From: a virus | Virus record (IMG/VR): IMGVR_UViG_3300030329_004891 | Span: 1-36,798 of that record | Reading direction: 5' to 3' (one strand) | Length of the DNA stretch: 36,798 bases | Shown: one piece after another, positions 108 through 36,798 of the stretch | How positions within the stretch are numbered: the first letter of the stretch is position 1 | Layout of the letters: each line of letters begins with the position of its first letter | The notes under the pieces: generated by a model | Database searches by the model: none | What the model was told of the DNA's origin: nothing | Seen by the model: the letters and a program-made list of their open reading frames with translations, nothing else | Position numbers and translations under genes: made by a program

Positions 108-623
108 ATGAATAAATTACAGATTAAATGTGTAGGAAGTGATGCAATAGAAATAAATAAACTACAAAGCTTTCAGGGTAATTTAAAAATTCTATCAGAA
201 GATCAAAAAAGTAAATTAAAAAATAGTATTTTAGAAAATGGCTTTATAGCACCAGTCTTTATCTGGAAAGATTCAGACCAGGAAGCAAAAAATTATATTT
301 TAGATGGACATCAAAGACTTGTTGTATTAAAAGAATTACAACAAGAAGGAATGGAAATCCCTAAAATACCTGTTTCATATATAGAAGCAAAAAATTTAAG
401 TGAAGCAAAAAAAAGATTGCTTTTAATTGCTTCTGCTTATGGAAAAACTACTAAAGAACGATTAACCGATTACTTAAATACTTCAGGATTAGATATAGAA
501 GTTTTAGATAATACAACATTTATGTTAAGTCAAAAAGATTTAGATAATTTATTAGAAGAAGATCCAACAATAGAACCTTTTAAATTAGAGCATATTTGTC
601 CATCTTGCGGTTATGAATACTAA
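108..623 (+). CDS. ParB/Srx-like nuclease-domain protein
   Basis: A 171-residue protein with the ParB/Srx fold signature: an early helix-strand region followed by YILDGHQRLVVLKEL, where GHQR (residues 67-70) is the usual DGHHR/GHQR phosphate-binding box. The C-terminus carries a CPSCGYEY zinc-ribbon-like tail. In phages such proteins often sit beside DNA methyltransferases, and here the stop overlaps the start of the methylase by 11 bases, so translation is probably coupled. The ATG at 108 is the first start after an in-frame TAG at 99-101. The best ribosome site, AAGGAG at 87-92, is 15 bases away, which is unusually far. The domain call is good. Whether the protein cuts DNA, or guides or protects it together with the methylase, is not visible. 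Confidence 0.8.
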   Translation: MNKLQIKCVGSDAIEINKLQSFQGNLKILSEDQKSKLKNSILENGFIAPVFIWKDSDQEAKNYILDGHQRLVVLKELQQEGMEIPKIPVSYIEAKNLSEAKKRLLLIASAYGKTTKERLTDYLNTSGLDIEVLDNTTFMLSQKDLDNLLEEDPTIEPFKLEHICPSCGYEY

Positions 624-1614
624 ACTTAAAGTTATTAGTTTATTTGCAGGAATTGGTGGATCTAGTTATGGATATAAAAAAGCAGGGTGTGAAGTAATTG
701 CAGCAATAGAATTTTTATCTGATGCTATAAGTAATTATAAACTAAATAATCCAACAGCTAAAACATATTGTGAAGATATAAGAAAACTAGATCCTTTAGA
801 AATTTTAAAAGAATTAAAATTACAACCTGGAGAATTGGATATTTTAGATGGGTCTCCACCATGTACAGGTTTTTCAATAGCAGGACTTGGTCATCATAAA
901 AAAGTAAAAATAAATAATCCTAAACAATATTCTAATACACACAAACATCAAAGAGTAGATGATTTATTTGGCGAATATATAAGATTTGTAAAACATATAC
1001 AACCAAAGACATTTGTAGCAGAAAATGTTAAAGGAATGATACAGGGTAAGTTTAAAGGGTTTTTTAATAATATTTTAAAAGAATTATCAAATTGTGGTTA
1101 TATAGTAGAAGCCCGATTAATGGATTCACAACATTACAAAGTACCGCAAACAAGAAAAAGAATTATTATTAGAGGAATTAGAAAAGATTTAAATAAAAAA
1201 ATACTATGGCCTAAAAGGTTATCTGAAACAGCAAAACTAAAAGACTATTTAAAATTTAAAGAAAAAGATAATAGTGAACGTTATGAATTAAAAGAAGGGA
1301 ATCAAGGGTATAATGATTATTATAAAATAATACCTGGTGAAAATTTTTCAAAAATATATGATGGAAAAAAATCATTTAATTTTCATCGTTCTTCATGGGA
1401 TAAACCTTCTCCCACAGTACCAGCCGCAGCTAATATTTTTCATCCTGATGAGCCTAGGTCTTTTTCTTTAAAAGAATACTATAAAATATTTGGTTTAGGA
1501 GAAAATTTTCAATTAAAAGGATCGTTTTATAAAAAAACAACTTTTTTAGGAAGAATGGTTGTTCCTGCTATAACAGAGAATCTTGCAATTTATATAAAAA
1601 AAGAATTATTATAA
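613..1614 (+). CDS. DNA (cytosine-5) methyltransferase
   Basis: A 333-residue C5 cytosine methylase with the family motifs in order: motif I LFAGIGGSSYG (residues 10-20, S-adenosylmethionine binding), motif IV GSPPCTGFS with catalytic Cys84, motif VI ENV (137-139), motif VIII QTRKR (179-183), and a C-terminal part resembling motifs IX-X. It would methylate cytosine at C5 in a recognition sequence that cannot be read from the protein. No partner restriction enzyme is recognisable, so it is likely an orphan methylase that protects phage DNA from host restriction. It overlaps the ParB-like gene upstream. The length is normal for a small Dcm-type enzyme and all core motifs are intact, so it is probably active. 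Confidence 0.93.
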   Translation: MNTKLKVISLFAGIGGSSYGYKKAGCEVIAAIEFLSDAISNYKLNNPTAKTYCEDIRKLDPLEILKELKLQPGELDILDGSPPCTGFSIAGLGHHKKVKINNPKQYSNTHKHQRVDDLFGEYIRFVKHIQPKTFVAENVKGMIQGKFKGFFNNILKELSNCGYIVEARLMDSQHYKVPQTRKRIIIRGIRKDLNKKILWPKRLSETAKLKDYLKFKEKDNSERYELKEGNQGYNDYYKIIPGENFSKIYDGKKSFNFHRSSWDKPSPTVPAAANIFHPDEPRSFSLKEYYKIFGLGENFQLKGSFYKKTTFLGRMVVPAITENLAIYIKKELL

Positions 1615-24836: not shown

Positions 24837-25181
24837 TTGAGGAATTTTAATCAGGTAATTATAGAAGGTAGATTAGTTAAAGATTTAGAAATCAAATATA
24901 CCAATACGGATATAATGGTTGCTAATTTAACTATTGCGTATAATAGAAGTTGGACAGATGCAGAAAAGAAAAAACATGAAGAAGTAGATTATATAGAAGC
25001 TAGATTATGGAATAAGTTAGCAGAAAACTGTTCTAAGTACCTGGGCAAGGGGCAATTAATAAGAATAGTTGGAGAACTAAGACAACAAAGATGGACAACC
25101 GAAAGCAACGAACCTAGATCTAAACTTATTGTAAATGTTAATCTTATTGATTGGGAGTATAGGGAGACAAAAAGTGAGTGA
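24837..25181 (+). CDS. ssb: single-stranded DNA-binding protein
   Basis: A 114-residue OB-fold protein: NQVIIEGRLVKDLEIKYT at the N-terminus, then ANLTIAYNRSW, YIEARLWNKLAENCSKYLGK and GQLIRIVGELRQQRWTTESN, the typical SSB order. It lacks the long acidic C-terminal tail of host SSB and ends EYRETKSE. It starts with TTG after AAGGA. It protects single strands during replication and recombination and is followed directly by its likely partner ERF. Confidence 0.92.
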   Translation: MRNFNQVIIEGRLVKDLEIKYTNTDIMVANLTIAYNRSWTDAEKKKHEEVDYIEARLWNKLAENCSKYLGKGQLIRIVGELRQQRWTTESNEPRSKLIVNVNLIDWEYRETKSE

Positions 25182-25818
25182 TGCTTTAAATATTGAATTT
25201 GACCAAGCACTTTTAAATTTTCAAAAAGAATGTCCATCAATACCAAAAAACAAATCGAGCAAATATCATAAATATGCCGATTTAGAATCAGTCATAATGA
25301 CAGTAAGACCTGTACTAAATAAGCATGGAATTGTTCTTCAGCAAGCTACTGAAAAAGATGGTGATGATCTTCTTTGCTATACAATTTTAAGATACAAAGG
25401 ATTAGTTAGAGAATCTAAAGGTTTTCCCATACCAAAAAATTCTGGAAATCCTAATATGACTCCTGCACAGGCTTGTGGTAGTGATAGCACTTATCAAAGA
25501 AGATATGATATGTGTGCCTTTTTAGGGGTAGTAAGTGAAGAAGATCCAGATGGAGGATTTGCATCTTCACGTTTAAATGAAGAAAAATCTGTAAAAAAAG
25601 TTACATCTATAAAAAAAAATAAACCAATAGAAAAAACTATAGAAAAAGTTTTAAATGATGATTTAGCTATTGGTTTAGAATATTGCTCTAAGTTTAAAGA
25701 CAAAAGCAAGGAAAAGTATTGGATGGAAAAAATGAAAAAAACCGTTCAAGAAAAAAATGGATCTTCTCTCTTATCTGCTCAAATAGAATCTGTAAAAAGA
25801 CAAATTGAGAATCAATAA
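25174..25818 (+). CDS. ERF-family single-strand annealing protein
   Basis: A 214-residue protein. FDQALLNFQKECPSIPKNKS then KYADLESVIMTVRPVLNKHG, and later MTPAQACGSDSTYQRRYDMC with FLGVVSEEDPDGG, are the conserved ERF core. It anneals complementary single strands and works with the exonuclease next door. A GTG at 25174, overlapping the SSB stop, is preferred over the longer ATG frame that runs inside ssb. The C-terminal 80 residues are a Lys-rich linker and a helical end. Confidence 0.88.
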   Translation: MSDALNIEFDQALLNFQKECPSIPKNKSSKYHKYADLESVIMTVRPVLNKHGIVLQQATEKDGDDLLCYTILRYKGLVRESKGFPIPKNSGNPNMTPAQACGSDSTYQRRYDMCAFLGVVSEEDPDGGFASSRLNEEKSVKKVTSIKKNKPIEKTIEKVLNDDLAIGLEYCSKFKDKSKEKYWMEKMKKTVQEKNGSSLLSAQIESVKRQIENQ

Positions 25819-26630
25819 TGGCAGGACATTGGTATAATAAAGAAGGTGAGCCTTGTCATGATGCTACTATGAAAGAAGTGAGAAAATATAAACTTTTACC
25901 TAGTGTAACTAGTATTTTAGGAATAATAGATAAAGGTCCATGGCTTTCAGAGTGGAAAGTAAATCAGGCAATATATAAAACTAAAAGCATTTTAGAAGAA
26001 CTTTCCAAAATAGATAATTTAAAAGAAGTTGAAGGATATACACCTAAAAAAGGAATTGATGAAGAAAAAATAAAATCCATGGTAAAAGAAGCATTATCTA
26101 ATGAGAGAGAAGTAACTTTAGAATTAGGCGAAGGTGTACACAGGTTATGCGAAGCATATTTAGGAAACGATCAGAACCTGTTTGAAGTTGAAAAAACAAA
26201 AGCTAATGCTTTCCAGGTTTATTTAAATTCTAAAATAGAGGAGAAGTTAGAAAAGTATAAAAATCAAGAAGATGGTTATACTGAAGAAATAGTTGTAAGT
26301 AGTTTAGGTTATGCAGGTAGGGTAGATTATTTTTGGCTAGATGATTCTATTCATATAAGAGATTTTAAAACACAAAACGTAAAGAAGCAACCTAATTTCT
26401 ATACTGACTGGATACCTCAACTTATGGCTTATAGCTATGCTATTCATGATAAAGATTTTTTTGAACCAGAAAAAGTAGATGCTGGTTCTATTATTATTTC
26501 TACAAATGAAATTAATAAAGGCAGCCATGAAAAAATATGGAGTAACAAGTCTAAAATAAAGGGTTGGCGAATCTTTATTAATGCTTTTAATTTATGGAAG
26601 ACGGTGTATGACTATGATCCGATTGTCTAA
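25818..26630 (+). CDS. PD-(D/E)XK exonuclease (RecB/Cas4-like)
   Basis: A 270-residue protein with the RecB-type nuclease motifs: LPSVTSILGIIDKGPWLSEW at the N-terminus, GEGVHRLCEAYL (His motif), GYAGRVDYFWLDDSIHIRDF then KTQ (the D...D-x-K active site) and WIPQLMAYSYAI (the Q-x3-Y motif). It would degrade one strand of phage ends to give substrate for the ERF annealing protein. The start overlaps the ERF stop as TAATG. All catalytic landmarks look intact. Confidence 0.88.
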   Translation: MAGHWYNKEGEPCHDATMKEVRKYKLLPSVTSILGIIDKGPWLSEWKVNQAIYKTKSILEELSKIDNLKEVEGYTPKKGIDEEKIKSMVKEALSNEREVTLELGEGVHRLCEAYLGNDQNLFEVEKTKANAFQVYLNSKIEEKLEKYKNQEDGYTEEIVVSSLGYAGRVDYFWLDDSIHIRDFKTQNVKKQPNFYTDWIPQLMAYSYAIHDKDFFEPEKVDAGSIIISTNEINKGSHEKIWSNKSKIKGWRIFINAFNLWKTVYDYDPIV

Positions 26631-28334: not shown

Positions 28335-28385
28335 GTACCTCCTTAAGTACAAACTAAATATATCATGTATACTAAAGAGTGTATA
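28335..28385 (-). promoter_or_regulatory. leftward promoter/operator copy A with ribosome-site block
   Basis: Read leftward: the dyad TATACACTCTTTAGTATACA (28385-28366), -10-like ATGATATAT, and GTACTTAAGGAGGTAC (28350-28335) five bases before ATG 28329. The ribosome-site block is two bases longer than in the other copies (GTACTTGGAGGTAC). This copy lies between divergent genes, next to the Xre regulator. Confidence 0.75.
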
Positions 28386-28458: not shown

Positions 28459-28734
28459 ATGATAGGAAAAAAGAAAAAAACAGATAAAGAAATAATAGCT
28501 AAAAAAGAATTGAATTCTGAATTGTTTGCTTATAGTAAATATATTGAAGCCTATAATTTTGTTAAAACTTTTAAACCAGATTTAAAAAAAATTAGATTGG
28601 CAAAAGGTTACACACAGCAAACATTAGCTGATTTAATAGGTGTAACTAAAAGTTATATTTCTAAAGTAGAAAATGGTGGTTCTGGTTTAACTGCTGATTT
28701 TTTAGATAAAATTATAAAATTATTTTTGAAATAA
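28459..28734 (+). CDS. Xre/Cro-type helix-turn-helix regulator
   Basis: A 91-residue protein. The C-terminal 55 residues form an HTH_3 domain: LKKIRLAKGYTQQTLADLIG then VTKSYISKVENGGSGLTADF, with the recognition helix around VTKSYISKVENG. The basic N-terminal extension (MIGKKKKTDKE) and helix are of unknown use. No peptidase or oligomerisation domain is present, so it resembles a Cro-type repressor more than CI. It has a good ribosome site (TAGGAG) and is divergent from promoter copy A. It is the best candidate to bind the 20-bp dyads. Confidence 0.85.
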   Translation: MIGKKKKTDKEIIAKKELNSELFAYSKYIEAYNFVKTFKPDLKKIRLAKGYTQQTLADLIGVTKSYISKVENGGSGLTADFLDKIIKLFLK

Positions 28735-31581: not shown

Positions 31582-32379
31582 ATGAAAGTATTAATAGTGT
31601 TGCAAGCAAGAAATGCAAGTACAAGATTTAAAAATAAAAGTTTATATCCTATAGGCAATATTTCGGCAATATCTCATCATTTAGAAAAAATGGTAAAATT
31701 AAAAGAGGTGTGTCAAAACTTAATAAAAATAGATTTAGGATTATGTACTACAGGTTTTAGTGAAGATGATATTCTAGTTCATTATGCTAAAAAGTTCCAT
31801 GTGAAACAAATAGTACGCGGAAAACCTTTACATTTATGGGAGCAATTTTATGATATTGTTCCTGGATATAAATTTTTTATGCGAATTTGTGGGGATCAGC
31901 CGTTTTTTAATTTGAAAATGGCAGAACATTTATTAAATGTTTTGTATCAAAATGAAGAGCATGATTATTATTCTTGGGTAACAAATAATAATATACCTAT
32001 TATGCAAACAAAAATAGGTTTAGGAACTGAAATAGTTAGAAGTTCAAAATTAAATACAAGAGTACAATTTAATCAAAATTATATGGAACATTTAACTCCT
32101 AAGTTTTATCTGGAAAAAGGACACAAAACTAAATTTATAGAAATACCAGAATTTATAACAAAATCAAAAGTATCTTTAAGTATTGATTATTTAGAAGATT
32201 GGATCATAGCTAATAAATGTTATTATGAATTAAAAGAAAAAACACAAGATTTAAAAGTTTTGTCACAATGGTTTATGAAAAATAAAATAGCTAATTCTTT
32301 ATTACAAGGAAGAAACAAAGCAAAAGAAAAATACAGGGGAAATAAATATAAAGGGGAAAAATGGGAACTTACATTATAG
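31582..32379 (+). CDS. SpsF-like cytidylyltransferase (CMP-nonulosonate type)
   Basis: A 265-residue protein. The N-terminus LIVLQARNASTRFKNKSLYP is the nucleotide-binding Q-A-R-x-x-S-x-R-F-K-x-K loop of SpsF/CMP-sugar synthetases, and FFMRICGDQPFFNLKMAEHL is the G-D-x-P-F motif. Its stop lies 19 bases inside the next gene, a NeuB-like synthase, so the two form one pathway: acid sugar made from PEP, then activated with CTP. The C-terminus is basic (SLLQGRNKAKEKYRGNK). The exact sugar is unknown. Confidence 0.75.
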   Translation: MKVLIVLQARNASTRFKNKSLYPIGNISAISHHLEKMVKLKEVCQNLIKIDLGLCTTGFSEDDILVHYAKKFHVKQIVRGKPLHLWEQFYDIVPGYKFFMRICGDQPFFNLKMAEHLLNVLYQNEEHDYYSWVTNNNIPIMQTKIGLGTEIVRSSKLNTRVQFNQNYMEHLTPKFYLEKGHKTKFIEIPEFITKSKVSLSIDYLEDWIIANKCYYELKEKTQDLKVLSQWFMKNKIANSLLQGRNKAKEKYRGNKYKGEKWELTL

Positions 32380-33461
32380 CTGAGATTGGTCAAAATCATA
32401 ACGGTAGTAAAAGAATAGCATCAGAATTAATAGATGTAGCAAGTCAAGAAATCATTCACGAAGGTGAAAAATTAAAAAAAGCAAATGCCGTAAAGTTTCA
32501 AATAAGAGATTTGGATTATGAATTAAATGAAGATTCTTATTTAAAAGAATATAAAAGTGTTAATGCTTTTGCAGATACTTACGGAAAGCATAGAGAATAT
32601 TTAGAAATTCCAATAGAAGAATATAAAGATTTAGCAGAAGAAGCAAGAGATAAAGGGTTAGATGTTGTTGTTACTGTTTGCAGCCCAACTATTATAGAAA
32701 AAATAAAAAAAATAATAAAACCTGATGCCTGGAAAGTAGCAAGTAGGGATTTAGGAAACATTCCATTATTAGAAGCTATTAATGAAGTGGACCCAAAAAA
32801 AGTTATTTTAAGTTCTGGTATGCATCAATTAGCAGATATAGAAGAAGCTGTTTACAGATTAGTGCTGCCAGAAATTATAGGAATCCTGCATTGTATAAGT
32901 GCTTACCCTACTAAGTATGAAGATTTAAATTTACGGGGTATGGAACAAATTAAAGAAAATTTTAAATCATATAATGGAACAACATTTAAAATAGGTTTTT
33001 CAGATCATACAGCAGGAGTTTTAGCTCCATCTGTTGCTGTAGCTTTAGGAGCACAAATTATAGAAAAACACATAACTCTAGATCATAGTATGAAAGGATC
33101 AGACCATTTTGGAAGTATGAATAGGGAAGGCTGGTTTAGGGTTGTTAGGGATATTAGAAATACTGAAAAAGCTATTTCTTTATGTCAAAGATTAAATGAC
33201 GGAATAAAAAATCCAGAAGAACAAAAAACATGGAACAAAATAGGTAGGGTTGCCTGTTATAAAAACAATATTAATAAAGGACAATATTTGGAAATAGAAG
33301 ATGTAATAATGTTATCACCTCCATCAAATGGACATTTAACAGGTATATCATGGGAAGATGCTTATAAATTTAACAATAAACCTTTACAAAAAGATGTAAA
33401 AGAAAATGAAATAATAATCCCTGAGCTTCACTTTCCTTTTGTTTCAAAGTATTATAAGTAA
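32361..33461 (+). CDS. NeuB/SpsE-like nonulosonic acid synthase
   Basis: A 366-residue NeuB-family enzyme: YIIAEIGQNHNGS at the N-terminus, AVKFQIRDLD, LHCISAYPTKYEDLNLRGME, FKIGFSDHTAGVLAPSVAVA and AQIIEKHITLDHSMKGSDHF, all hallmarks of the TIM-barrel that condenses PEP with an N-acetyl-hexosamine. The last 60 residues are a SAF-type antifreeze-like domain (GRVACYKNNINKGQYLEIED). It could make sialic, legionaminic or pseudaminic acid. No sugar-precursor gene is present, so it likely uses host intermediates. Ribosome site AAGGGG before the ATG. Confidence 0.9.
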   Translation: MGTYIIAEIGQNHNGSKRIASELIDVASQEIIHEGEKLKKANAVKFQIRDLDYELNEDSYLKEYKSVNAFADTYGKHREYLEIPIEEYKDLAEEARDKGLDVVVTVCSPTIIEKIKKIIKPDAWKVASRDLGNIPLLEAINEVDPKKVILSSGMHQLADIEEAVYRLVLPEIIGILHCISAYPTKYEDLNLRGMEQIKENFKSYNGTTFKIGFSDHTAGVLAPSVAVALGAQIIEKHITLDHSMKGSDHFGSMNREGWFRVVRDIRNTEKAISLCQRLNDGIKNPEEQKTWNKIGRVACYKNNINKGQYLEIEDVIMLSPPSNGHLTGISWEDAYKFNNKPLQKDVKENEIIIPELHFPFVSKYYK

Positions 33462-34178: not shown

Positions 34179-34469
34179 ATGAAAAAATTAATTATTATAT
34201 ATATGTTAGTAGCAACTATAGGAATAGCAGAAAGTTATTATCATTTTTACAACCAATTAACTTCAGAAGAAAAAATAATTTTTATTAAAGGAGTTATAAT
34301 TGGTTTTGACTCTGCTAAAATATTAATAGAACAAGATAAAGAAAGACAAATAAGACACATAGAAATAAAGTTACATAAATTTATTGGTGCTATAGATGAA
34401 GGAATAGAACCAGATTTAACTTCAAGAATAGTAAGAGAAATAAGAAAAATGATGTGGTTTTTAGAATAA
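34179..34469 (+). CDS. small exported or membrane-anchored protein
   Basis: A 96-residue protein with an N-terminal hydrophobic segment (MKKLIIIYMLVATIGIAESY) that looks like a signal peptide (possible cleavage near GIA|ES), followed by a helical, charged domain (QDKERQIRHIEIKLHKFIGA). It has the site GGGGGAGAT before ATG. No family recognised. It is the last rightward gene before the leftward cassettes and shares a bidirectional terminator with the first of them. Confidence 0.6.
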   Translation: MKKLIIIYMLVATIGIAESYYHFYNQLTSEEKIIFIKGVIIGFDSAKILIEQDKERQIRHIEIKLHKFIGAIDEGIEPDLTSRIVREIRKMMWFLE

Positions 34470-34470
34470 A

Positions 34471-34500
34471 AAAGCCCACTCGAAAGAGTGGGCTTTTAAT
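34471..34500. terminator. bidirectional terminator, GAAA loop
   Basis: AAAGCCCACTC (34471-34481), GAAA, GAGTGGGCTTT (34486-34496), 11 perfect pairs with U-tracts both ways. Ends the rightward gene at 34469 and the leftward gene at 34517. Confidence 0.93.
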
Positions 34501-34516
34501 AACTTATTAATAAGTT

Positions 34517-34819
34517 TTATTGTAAATTGCCTGTAGGTTCTTCTGTCCAATGATCAAAATCATCTTGGTCCAAATTATCCATGTTGTAGTGTCTGCTTAA
34601 TAAATTTTCCATTTTTATTTCTACTTTGTTTTTACTTAGTTTTAATACTTTTTCAATGTTAGCTATTTCTAATAGTTCTTTTTCTAAATTTGCTAAATGT
34701 TTTTTAACAGCATCAGCTACAGCAGTTTCATCAGCTAAATGATTTTTAGCTAAAGTAAAATCAAGTGCATATCCTTTTAATCCAACTTCATCATTAATTA
34801 AAGAATTATTTTTTTCCAT
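34517..34819 (-). CDS. leftward cassette protein (100 aa)
   Basis: A 100-residue acidic helical protein: GYALDFTLAKNHLADETAVA then HLANLEKELLEIANIEKVLK, ending in an acidic tail. No family known. The start is ATG 34819, six bases after GTACTTGGAGGTAC. The longer frame to 34870 only translates the promoter leader. Single-gene unit with its own promoter (copy B) and terminator. Confidence 0.72.
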   Translation of the reverse strand: MEKNNSLINDEVGLKGYALDFTLAKNHLADETAVADAVKKHLANLEKELLEIANIEKVLKLSKNKVEIKMENLLSRHYNMDNLDQDDFDHWTEEPTGNLQ

Positions 34820-34825
34820 TTTTTT

Positions 34826-34883
34826 GTACCTCCAAGTACTTTTAAACTTAATTAAATATATCATATACACTAAAAGGTGTATA
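34826..34883 (-). promoter_or_regulatory. leftward promoter/operator copy B
   Basis: Read leftward: TATACACCTTTTAGTGTATA (34883-34864), -10-like ATGATATAT, TTAATTAAG, then GTACTTGGAGGTAC (34839-34826). The right arm is a perfect complement of the consensus TATACACT; the left arm differs at one base. Confidence 0.8.
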
Positions 34884-34923
34884 CCCTTTTATTAAAAATA
34901 ATTAGCATTTAAGCAAAAAAAAA

Positions 34924-34950
34924 CCTACTCAAAAGAGTAGGCTTTTAATT
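34924..34950 (-). terminator. leftward terminator
   Basis: CCTACTC-AAAA-GAGTAGG (34924-34941), with an A-run on the left giving a U-tract leftward, and TTTT on the right. Ends the 109-residue gene. Confidence 0.85.
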
Positions 34951-34969
34951 TAATTATTTTATATTTATG

Positions 34970-35299
34970 TTAAAATGGAGAACCATCCCACCATAATGGG
35001 TTATTTCTAACATTTTCATCAAGGGCTTGAGATTTTAAATACTTTTTAGAAATTTTGTCTATTTTTTTATCAAAATCTGTAAATACAGTTTTTACTAATC
35101 GTGTTAAATCTGCATTAATTTTTTTACCTAATGAATTTGAATGTTCAATAACTTCATTTGTTACTGGATTAACAGAATTATAAACACTCATAGTTGAAGA
35201 AAAAGCTTTTACCATTTGCAATTGTTCTATAGTAAGACTTGGAAATTTTATTTCCAATAAGTTTTTTATAATTTCTTGTTTTTGTTTTTTTTCTGACAT
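34970..35299 (-). CDS. leftward cassette protein (109 aa)
   Basis: A 109-residue protein, mainly helical and Lys-rich: EIIKNLLEIKFPSLTIEQLQ then ADLTRLVKTVFTDFDKKIDK, ending NNPLWWDGSPF. No family known. ATG three bases after GTACTTGGAGGTAC. Its own promoter (copy C) and terminator. Confidence 0.72.
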   Translation of the reverse strand: MSEKKQKQEIIKNLLEIKFPSLTIEQLQMVKAFSSTMSVYNSVNPVTNEVIEHSNSLGKKINADLTRLVKTVFTDFDKKIDKISKKYLKSQALDENVRNNPLWWDGSPF

Positions 35300-35302
35300 T
35301 GT

Positions 35303-35356
35303 GTACCTCCAAGTACTTTATACATTTAATATATCATAAACACTAAAGAGTGTACA
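35303..35356 (-). promoter_or_regulatory. leftward promoter/operator copy C
   Basis: Read leftward: TGTACACTCTTTAGTGTTTA (35356-35337), ATGATATAT, then GTACTTGGAGGTAC (35316-35303). Arms ACACT and AGTGT pair exactly. The distance between dyad and ribosome-site block is four bases shorter than in B, D and E. Confidence 0.8.
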
Positions 35357-35395
35357 TAGTTATTTAAAAATAATTCATATTTAAGCAAAAAAAAA

Positions 35396-35420
35396 CCCAC
35401 TCTTTCGAGTGGGATTCTTT
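35396..35420 (-). terminator. leftward terminator, GAAA loop
   Basis: CCCACTC-TTTC-GAGTGGG (35396-35413); leftward it reads CCCACTC-GAAA-GAGTGGG followed by a U9 run. Ends the 81-residue gene. Confidence 0.9.
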
Positions 35421-35431
35421 TGAAGATTTGT

Positions 35432-35677
35432 TTAAAAATCCATATCTACAGCTAAGCCTTGGGCTATATGCTGTAAAAAGTGATGAATATTACCGTTAGC
35501 AAAATCAAGCTGTCTTAAAATATTTTCAATTTGCTTGGCTTCGTCTCCTTTTGTTCTTTTAATTGCGTCTATTACAGTAGTAGATGGTATTATGTTTGCT
35601 GTTCCTTTTGCTGAAGTAACTGTATAAGTTTTTTCTGAAAGATTTTTTTCTGCAAAGAAAGTTTCAAAGAATGTCAT
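35432..35677 (-). CDS. leftward cassette protein (81 aa)
   Basis: An 81-residue protein (MTFFETFFAEKNLSEKTYTV; VIDAIKRTKGDEAKQIENIL; FANGNIHHFLQHIAQG) with one beta and two helix regions. No family known. The start is ATG 35677, five bases after GTACTTGGAGGTAC, not the upstream ATG 35692 which lies inside the leader. Own promoter (copy D) and terminator. Confidence 0.72.
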   Translation of the reverse strand: MTFFETFFAEKNLSEKTYTVTSAKGTANIIPSTTVIDAIKRTKGDEAKQIENILRQLDFANGNIHHFLQHIAQGLAVDMDF

Positions 35678-35682
35678 TTTTT

Positions 35683-35740
35683 GTACCTCCAAGTACTTAT
35701 TAACTTAATTAAATATATCATGTTAACTAAAAAGTGTACA
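35683..35740 (-). promoter_or_regulatory. leftward promoter/operator copy D
   Basis: Read leftward: TGTACACTTTTTAGTTAACA (35740-35721), ATGATATAT, TTAATTAAG, then GTACTTGGAGGTAC (35696-35683). The right arm is the least conserved of the set. Confidence 0.8.
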
Positions 35741-35780
35741 TACTTTTATTAAAAATAATTAGTATTTAAGCAAAAAAAAA

Positions 35781-35805
35781 CCCACTCTTTCAAGTGGGTT
35801 TTTAA
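35781..35805 (-). terminator. leftward terminator
   Basis: CCCACT-CTTTCA-AGTGGG (35781-35798), A9 on the left giving a U9 run leftward, TTTTT on the right. Ends the 85-residue gene. Same family of sequence as the terminators at 34471 and 35396. Confidence 0.88.
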
Positions 35806-35819
35806 TTTAATTATTTACA

Positions 35820-36077
35820 TTAATCTCTTTCGTAAAATATTCCAATCGTACTTCCATAATAATCTTTCCATCCAGTTTCATGAATAGAACTTAATGCGAC
35901 TGCTTCCCTCCAAGTTGGTAAAGCGTCTTCATCTGGATATTCTTTTTCCCATTCTATAGTAGCAATGTCATTATTTATCATAATAATCTTTCCATGTCCT
36001 TCTGAAATTCCTGCACCATAATCAGCCCTAACCTTAGGTAATACTTCACTTAAAATTGTTGATTTGTGTTGTTCCAT
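35820..36077 (-). CDS. leftward cassette protein (85 aa)
   Basis: An 85-residue protein (EGHGKIIMINNDIATIEWEK; WREAVALSSIHETGWKDYYG), beta-rich and acidic. No family known. The start is ATG 36077, three bases after GTACTTGGAGGTAC. The longer frame to 36248 translates the promoter leader, giving the same IYLIKFKSTWRYK seen before the 34.5 kb gene, which shows that this is shared control DNA, not protein. Confidence 0.72.
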   Translation of the reverse strand: MEQHKSTILSEVLPKVRADYGAGISEGHGKIIMINNDIATIEWEKEYPDEDALPTWREAVALSSIHETGWKDYYGSTIGIFYERD

Positions 36078-36080
36078 TTT

Positions 36081-36138
36081 GTACCTCCAAGTACTTTTAA
36101 ATTTAATTAAATATATCATAAACACTAAATAGTGTATA
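36081..36138 (-). promoter_or_regulatory. leftward promoter/operator copy E
   Basis: Read leftward: TATACACTATTTAGTGTTTA (36138-36119), ATGATATAT, TTAATTAAA, then GTACTTGGAGGTAC (36094-36081). The inner arms ACACTA and TAGTGT are perfect. It lies between the leftward gene and the rightward gene at 36193. Confidence 0.82.
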
Positions 36139-36192: not shown

Positions 36193-36471
36193 ATGTTTAC
36201 AGAGTTTATTGAAGGTTTTAAAGCGATGGAAAACTCTGCAAAATACACAGGTAAAATTAAAAATCAATTTCAAATTAAATATTGTAATAAGCATTTTAAA
36301 GTTATAAAAGCAATGGAAAAAGGTGATCCTGGGTTAGCTTTAGAATTTGAAACTTATGCAAAATATAAGATGAATAAAACAGGTTGTTCTATATGTCAAT
36401 ATATAGCTCAAGTAGAGTGGGGGCATAAAGAATATATGAGGGGGGGTATTGCAGAAACCAGACAGAACTAA
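36193..36471 (+). CDS. small Cys/His metal-motif protein
   Basis: A 92-residue protein with IKYCNKHFKVIKAMEKGD then NKTGCSICQYIAQVEWGHKE: a C-x2-H pair and a C-x2-C pair, probably one zinc site. The start at ATG 36193 has AGGA upstream; the TTG at 36157 lies in the control region. It overlaps the HNH gene by 23 bases. Possibly related to HNH cofactors, but no family is certain. Confidence 0.6.
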   Translation: MFTEFIEGFKAMENSAKYTGKIKNQFQIKYCNKHFKVIKAMEKGDPGLALEFETYAKYKMNKTGCSICQYIAQVEWGHKEYMRGGIAETRQN

Positions 36472-36798
36472 AACAGCTAACTTTACTTATAGAAAATATA
36501 ATCATGAATGGAAAAAAATACGGAATAGCTATATTAAAAGAAATCCTAAATGTGTGAGGTGTAAACATCCTGCAGAATTAGTAGATCATATAATTACTTT
36601 ATTTGATGGAGGAACACATCACGAAAGCAACTTGCAAAGCTTATGTAGAATCTGTCATGGTATAAAAACTAAATATGATCTAATTAAAAGATATCCAAAG
36701 AGAAAACCGTCCAGGCTACCTAAAGAAGTTATTAGTGTTACTCATGTAGACGATAGGGGGGAAAGGGGGGTAAAATCTCTAGAGGGATTCTCAACACA
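36449..36798 (+). CDS. HNH endonuclease, partial at right end
   Basis: A frame of 116 codons running off the window. It begins with TTG just after GAGGGGGGG. Visible motifs: NPKCVRCKHPAELVDHIITL (first Cys pair and the D-H), then HHESNLQSLCRICHGIKTKY (Asn and second Cys pair), a classical zinc-HNH. Such genes precede TerS in cos-type phages, and the enzyme helps terminase cut cos. Joining the right end to the left end keeps the frame open for 13 more codons to a TAA at 41-43, giving about 130 residues. The last part is GVKSLEGFSTQ. Confidence 0.88.
   Translation, partial: MQKPDRTKTANFTYRKYNHEWKKIRNSYIKRNPKCVRCKHPAELVDHIITLFDGGTHHESNLQSLCRICHGIKTKYDLIKRYPKRKPSRLPKEVISVTHVDDRGERGVKSLEGFST
36757..36798 (+). 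other. G-run region, possible cos-proximal site
   Basis: GATAGGGGGGAAAGGGGGG then TAAAATCTCTAGAGG lies at the right end inside the HNH frame, and a similar G9 run (30-38, GGAGGGGGGGGGTATAAAAA) lies near the left end, before the first gene. G-rich runs with short inverted repeats between HNH and TerS are commonly where cos lies. No direct proof of the cleavage position. Confidence 0.35.

What the first reader, a model, noticed from the sequence alone, without database searches (positions are those of the whole stretch)
34471..36138. Single-gene cassettes: promoter, ORF, terminator repeated in tandem
From 36.1 to 34.5 kb four leftward units repeat the same frame: dyad promoter, ribosome block, unrelated ORF (85, 81, 109, 100 aa) and terminator of the CCCACTC/GAGTGGG type. 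The intergenic DNA is similar in each case (AATAATTAGTATTTAAGC beside an A-run). Such similar flanks would let genes be swapped by recombination, making this an exchangeable accessory array.
Basis: partly seen in the sequence, partly recalled or inferred. Interest (0 to 1): 0.7.

Follow-up and report, generated by a model that had tools for sequence, protein, structure and literature searches.

The report
Phage array of swappable one-gene cassettes
At one end of an uncultured phage genome, four unrelated small genes each carry their own near-identical promoter, ribosome site and terminator, and in other phages that share one of these genes such one-gene cassettes are seen to come and go by crossing over inside the repeated promoters.

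Summary
Four leftward units (ORFs of 85, 81, 109 and 100 aa, unrelated to each other) each have a repeated promoter, a 17-nt ribosome-site block identical in all four (0.11 matches expected by chance) and a terminator; the three junctions are 76-86% identical.

It could be run on arrays carrying ORF2 relatives. In five related phages (L133-L137) the outer genes are 94-96% (left) and 81-93% (right) identical in DNA, while 4, 3, 0, 1 and 1 small ORFs lie between them; two junctions are hybrids with crossovers inside the promoter repeat. Of 51 ORF2-family loci, 29 have their upstream DNA repeated nearby, against 26 of 348 small genes of other phages; each phage uses its own repeat.

Best reading: a co-regulated array of accessory genes whose repeated flanks allow gene gain and loss, a PeSL-like and SAS/ESAS-like system. 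For the window itself, exchange is inferred.

The parts
36111..36138 (-). promoter/operator of cassette 1 (TATACACTATTTAGTGTTTATGATATAT)
36080..36096 (-). ribosome-site block of cassette 1, AAGTACTTGGAGGTACA; Shine-Dalgarno GGAGG partly inside a predicted 5-bp hairpin
35820..36077 (-). ORF1, 85 aa, no family match above cut-off, no homologue found
35776..35803 (-). terminator after ORF1
35713..35740 (-). promoter/operator of cassette 2
35682..35698 (-). ribosome-site block of cassette 2
35432..35677 (-). ORF2, 81 aa, phrog_6004 family (function unknown), at least 161 relatives in IMG/VR
35396..35413 (-). terminator after ORF2
35329..35356 (-). promoter/operator of cassette 3
35302..35318 (-). 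ribosome-site block of cassette 3
34970..35299 (-). ORF3, 109 aa, no family
34919..34946 (-). terminator after ORF3 (loop inverted relative to the first two)
34856..34883 (-). promoter/operator of cassette 4
34825..34841 (-). ribosome-site block of cassette 4
34517..34819 (-). ORF4, 100 aa, no family
34470..34497 (-). terminator after ORF4; could also serve the convergent ORF 34179-34469(+)
28358..28385 (-). fifth copy of the promoter/operator (TATACACTCTTTAGTATACATGATATAT), followed by a variant structured ribosome site TTTGTACTTAAGGAGGTACAAAA
28021..28329 (-). 102-aa ORF placed behind the fifth copy, followed by a 93-aa ORF at 27954-27673 and a stem-loop terminator
28459..28734 (+). HTH_3 (Cro/C1-type) regulator, divergent from the fifth copy; candidate binder of the dyad (inferred)
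25135..26630 (+). Erf single-strand annealing protein and PD-(D/E)XK exonuclease: the phage's own recombination machinery

Best explanation
The locus is an array of four autonomous one-gene transcription units, each made of a promoter with an operator-like dyad, a structured ribosome site, a small accessory ORF and an intrinsic terminator. Shown: the anatomy, the near identity of the flanks, the lack of relatedness of the ORFs, and a fifth promoter copy beside a Cro/C1-type regulator gene. Inferred: that regulator, or a related one, sets all five promoters together, so the cassettes are one dispersed regulon of small host-interaction proteins. Also inferred for this phage, but shown by comparison in other phages carrying ORF2 relatives: the repeats let homologous recombination (here plausibly by the phage's Erf and exonuclease) insert, delete or move single genes without disturbing expression, because a crossover within the repeat rebuilds a working promoter.
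For: Repeated flanks far beyond chance; ORFs unrelated. Fifth copy at the switch beside an HTH_3 gene. Phage-encoded Erf and exonuclease. Shared sites are clustered along the three junctions (permutation p=0.006), consistent with exchange between copies. In L133-L137, gene F1 and the ORF2 homologue enclose 4, 3, 0, 1 and 1 small ORFs (3, 2, 0, 1 and 0 of them behind the repeated promoter), gaps 1693, 1525, 177, 560 and 362 nt, while left flanks are 94-96% and right flanks 81-93% identical; one ORF family (L133c/L136a) sits at a different position in each. L135 and L137 junctions are hybrids: -35 and spacer 19-21 of 21 like the first array promoter (only 12-14 like the ordinary ORF2-homologue promoter), while -10 to start is 19-20 of 20 and 20-22 of 22 like the ORF2-homologue promoter, with different crossover points. 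Group A: the ORF2 homologue and the next conserved gene are separated by nothing, a 256-aa gene or a 294-aa methyltransferase-like gene. Upstream DNA of ORF2-family genes is repeated in 29 of 51 loci against 26 of 348 controls.
Against: No relative of the window phage itself could be compared, so exchange here is by analogy. About 40% of ORF2 relatives are not behind repeated DNA. The mosaic test on three short junctions is weak, since the terminator-loop change counts as several sites. Consensus promoters alone are no more frequent than in shuffles (19 against 22). There are no expression or binding data.
Confidence: 0.72

Rival explanations
1. The flanks are alike only because of shared regulation: one regulator and strong selection for the same promoter and ribosome site; the array is stable and gene exchange plays no part.
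For: The fifth copy at the switch shares promoter and ribosome site but not the terminator-side spacer; the ribosome block is 17/17 identical in all four.
Against: The terminator and the spacer of about 28 nt, which a promoter does not need, are also alike at three junctions. Comparable arrays show gene gain/loss with crossovers in the repeats.
Confidence: 0.2
2. Recent tandem duplication of one cassette, followed by rapid divergence of the ORFs.
For: Junction identity of 76-86%; two adjacent same-family genes (83 and 94 aa) in L133 show that duplication does happen in such arrays.
Against: The four ORFs have no shared sequence; the best pair, ORF2/ORF4, is reached by 1 of 200 shuffles, not significant over 15 pairs. 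ORF2 alone has a wide phage family. Coding DNA would have to lose all trace while non-coding spacer stayed over 75% alike.
Confidence: 0.06
3. Integron-like or other site-specific cassette system in which the dyad or ribosome block is a recombinase site.
For: Dyads and exact repeats next to each gene.
Against: No integrase was identified among the ORFs scanned; crossover points in L135 and L137 differ, which fits homologous rather than site-specific exchange; the repeats are promoters and ribosome sites.
Confidence: 0.02

Closest known systems
PeSLs (promoter-early stem-loops) of T4-type phages (Arbiol 2010, Comeau 2014; as cited in PMC4503421)
   Same: Intergenic unit of terminator stem-loop plus promoter, repeated between small genes, credited with shuffling of genes between related phages.
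   Different: T4-type early promoters in large myophages; here sigma-70-like promoters with a dyad and a structured ribosome site in a 37 kb phage, with one copy at a regulator gene. The source papers were not held; described from the citing paper and own knowledge.
SAS/ESAS of cluster K mycobacteriophages and Microbacterium cluster EF phages (PMC3203893, PMC11373665, PMC7302621)
   Same: Extra-conserved 13-bp ribosome-site sequence at small genes, part of them with an upstream inverted repeat that contains a SigA-like promoter; the sequence differs between phage groups.
   Different: Sequence unrelated; here every unit also ends in an intrinsic terminator and the genes are tandem single units; exchange is shown in arrays of ORF2 relatives.
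Shared early promoters of anti-defence genes in archaeal viruses (PMC11065993)
   Same: Virus-specific repeated regulatory sequence before unrelated small single genes, some with inverted repeats and a linked regulator.
   Different: Archaeal TATA/BRE promoters; anti-defence function was tested there and is unknown here.
Morons of lambdoid phages (own knowledge)
   Same: Single gene with its own promoter and terminator.
   Different: Morons have individual, not shared, flanks and usually sit alone.

Membership tests
PeSL | Composite terminator stem-loop plus promoter between small genes, several copies per genome | tested here: met
PeSL | T4-type phage and T4-type early promoter | tested here: not met
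   TerL, portal and capsid match phrog_9, phrog_12 and phrog_10 in a 37 kb contig with a tape-measure gene; promoters are TRTACA-17-TATATT
PeSL | Mediates gene shuffling between relatives | tested here: inconclusive
   No relatives of this phage; shown for ORF2-bearing arrays L133-L137
SAS/ESAS | Extra-conserved short sequence at the ribosome site of several small genes | tested here: met
   AAGTACTTGGAGGTACA 4 of 4
SAS/ESAS | Upstream inverted repeat overlapping a sigma-70/SigA-like promoter | tested here: met
   Five promoters with an imperfect dyad in the same register, two individually p<0.03
SAS/ESAS | Sequence homology to the cluster K or EF motifs | tested here: not met
   By reading: GTACTTGGAGGTAC here against GGGAAAGGACCCC in cluster EF
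phrog_6004 (ORF2) | Profile match over the full length | tested here: met
   E=2.3e-11, residues 4-80 on 8-88 of 88
Anti-defence genes | Inhibits a defence system | not testable with these tools
   No meaningful PADLOC, Pfam or structural match

The most novel reading that the evidence does not exclude
Diverse tailed phages have independently built lineage-specific repeated promoter/ribosome-site cassettes around small accessory genes, and certain gene families (phrog_6004/ORF2 first) live preferentially in them. Repeated flanks would then be a general device for plug-in gene exchange and a sequence-only way to find host-takeover and anti-defence genes in bacteriophages.
Probability: 0.4. Interest if true: 0.75.

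Novelty: new variant of a known kind. Interest (0 to 1): 0.55.

Why it matters
It shows, with hybrid junctions, how phages can gain and lose single small genes without breaking their expression, outside the T4 group where this was proposed. It also supplies a marker (repeated promoter plus ribosome site within one genome) and a gene family with which to find accessory genes in uncultured phages.

Tried and rejected
Close relatives of the window by DNA, by exact ribosome block (35 stretches, inspected, none with this promoter), by promoter pattern and by TerL (best 51%): none near. Relatives of ORF1 and ORF4: none; ORF3: one weak partial match, L122; no copy of the window's flank was seen among its listed repeats. 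Genome scan for ORF2: one hit, Halomonas sulfidaeris, upstream DNA not repeated. ORF2 fold: AlphaFold model with pLDDT 83, no significant match in PDB or BFVD. Rfam: only sub-threshold matches, three of the four at terminators. A general rule that such promoters carry a dyad between -35 and -10 was tested and rejected: clear in L169, partial in the window and L186, absent in L180 and most L133 copies. Integron-like and tandem-duplication readings are rejected as given under rivals.

Full report
WHAT IS THERE. The window is a whole IMG/VR virus record of 36,798 bases, a tailed phage: TerS, TerL, portal, major head and tape-measure genes run rightward, followed by single-strand DNA-binding protein, Erf annealing protein, exonuclease, an HTH regulator, replication initiator and DnaB helicase. 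Near the right end four genes run leftward, against most of the genome. They are ORF1 36077-35820, ORF2 35677-35432, ORF3 35299-34970 and ORF4 34819-34517, of 85, 81, 109 and 100 aa.

Every unit has the same parts in the same register: TRTACA, 17 nt, TATATT preceded by TGa (a sigma-70-like promoter with extended -10), then AAGTACTTGGAGGTACA a few bases before the start codon, the ORF, and a stem-loop followed by T's. The 17-nt block is identical four times (0.11 expected). The only 16-mers found three or more times in the whole window come from these flanks. The three full junctions are 110/135, 125/145 and 103/135 identical, while no pair of ORFs is convincingly similar. In RNA the block is predicted to fold into a weak 5-bp hairpin that holds part of the GGAGG.

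A FIFTH COPY. The promoter/operator recurs at 28358-28385 (about zero expected), followed by GTACTTAAGGAGGTAC, a variant of the block with a longer predicted stem. It lies before a leftward pair of small ORFs and faces the HTH_3 (Cro/C1-type) gene at 28459-28734, which heads the rightward replication genes. The array therefore looks like a remote part of the regulon of the phage's switch. That the HTH protein binds the dyad is inference. The dyad (TRTACACT-n4-AGTGTAYA, imperfect) is better than shuffled sequence at p<0.03 in two of five copies and weak in the rest.

IS IT EXCHANGEABLE? The direct test needs relatives of this phage, and none turned up in IMG/VR, INPHARED or GTDB genomes; the nearest TerL is about 51% identical. 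ORF1 and ORF4 have no detectable relatives, and ORF3 has one weak partial match. ORF2 belongs to phrog_6004 and has many, and these allow an indirect test.

Five phages, L133 to L137, carry ORF2 homologues (about 55% identical to the window's for those measured) and share the gene family F1 on one side and the ORF2 homologue with its downstream genes on the other. Left flanks are 94-96% and right flanks 81-93% identical in DNA; between them lie 1693, 1525, 177, 560 and 362 nt holding 4, 3, 0, 1 and 1 small ORFs, of which 3, 2, 0, 1 and 0 stand behind the repeated promoter. These are separated by the same kind of joint of roughly 95 nt: a terminator, often GACCCCGAAAGGGGTC, then TTGACA-17-TATACT, AAAGAAGTC or a variant, and the start. 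The joint before the ORF2 homologue in L135 and L137 is hybrid. Its -35 half is that of the first promoter of the longer arrays (19-21 of 21 matches, against 12-14 for the ordinary promoter of the ORF2 homologue). Its -10 half and leader are those of the ordinary promoter of the ORF2 homologue (19-20 of 20, and 20-22 of 22). The switch point differs: L135 has TTGTTTG and L137 has TTATATG before the -10. Gain or loss of cassettes by crossing over inside the repeated promoter is the simplest account; the direction is not determined.

A second group (L120, L121, L128 and others) tells the same story with other flanks: after the ORF2 homologue comes directly the next conserved gene (L121), or an extra 256-aa gene (L120), or an extra 294-aa gene that reads as a DNA methyltransferase (L128). 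That last name is from reading the sequence, not from a profile search.

HOW GENERAL. For 51 ORF2-family loci the 80 nt upstream of the gene were compared with the rest of the locus (up to about 8 kb). In 29 the match is far above shuffled controls (z>6), against 26 of 348 small genes and 30 of 684 larger genes in TerL-anchored loci of other phages (Fisher p about 1e-15 for the first comparison). The repeats differ between phages: Mycobacterium phage Thonko (L186) has eight copies of a TTGACA..CGACnnnGTCG..TAACTT promoter with a hairpin before the ribosome site, and L174 has three copies over 67-69 identical bases. Controls used the first ATG as start, which may lower their rate somewhat, and some ORF2 loci are near-duplicates, so the p-value overstates independence.

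COMPARISON WITH THE KNOWN. Two described things come close. The SAS/ESAS of cluster K mycobacteriophages are 13-bp extra-conserved ribosome-site sequences at small genes, part of them with an upstream inverted repeat that holds a SigA-like promoter (PMC3203893; PMC11373665); similar motifs of other sequence exist in Microbacterium phages (PMC7302621). The PeSLs of T4-type phages combine stem-loop and promoter and are credited with gene shuffling (PMC4503421; original papers not held). The present array combines both anatomies in an unrelated small phage. It works like a PeSL array but is not a member by promoter type or phage group. In archaeal viruses a shared early promoter marks anti-defence genes (PMC11065993), so a host-takeover or anti-defence role of ORF1-ORF4 is a reasonable guess, but nothing here tests it: PADLOC, Pfam, PDB and BFVD gave no meaningful match.

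VERDICT. Observation confirmed and extended.

Noticed in passing
window 34919-34946 and 34470-34497 against 35776-35803 and 35396-35413: Terminator loops of cassettes 3/4 (TTTT/TTTC) are the reverse complement of, or close to that of, those of cassettes 1/2 (GAAA): the stem-loops appear flipped in place.
   Followed up: no
L186 (Mycobacterium phage Thonko), eight copies between 28 and 7275: Repeated promoter with a CGACnnnGTCG dyad in the spacer and a GGCGGGA/ACCCGCC hairpin before the ribosome site of unrelated small genes.
   Followed up: partly
L169, copies at about 3896, 5817, 6108, 6499: Strong dyad ATAGGGC-n5-GCCCTAT between -35 and -10 of four repeated promoters (p 0.006 or less each).
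   Followed up: partly
window 31582-33461: Cytidylyltransferase-like gene and NeuB-like sialic-acid synthase gene, unusual cargo for a 37 kb phage.
   Followed up: no
window 108-1614: ParB-like/methyltransferase-associated gene followed by a DNA methyltransferase just before TerS.
   Followed up: no
window about 36460-36798 (+): Open-ended ORF that reads like an HNH endonuclease, cut by the contig end; the contig is probably incomplete or circularly permuted.
   Followed up: no
L120 829-1599 and L128 271-1155: In sister arrays, larger genes (256 aa, and a methyltransferase-like gene of 294 aa) sit directly after the ORF2 homologue's terminator without a promoter of their own in view.
   Followed up: partly
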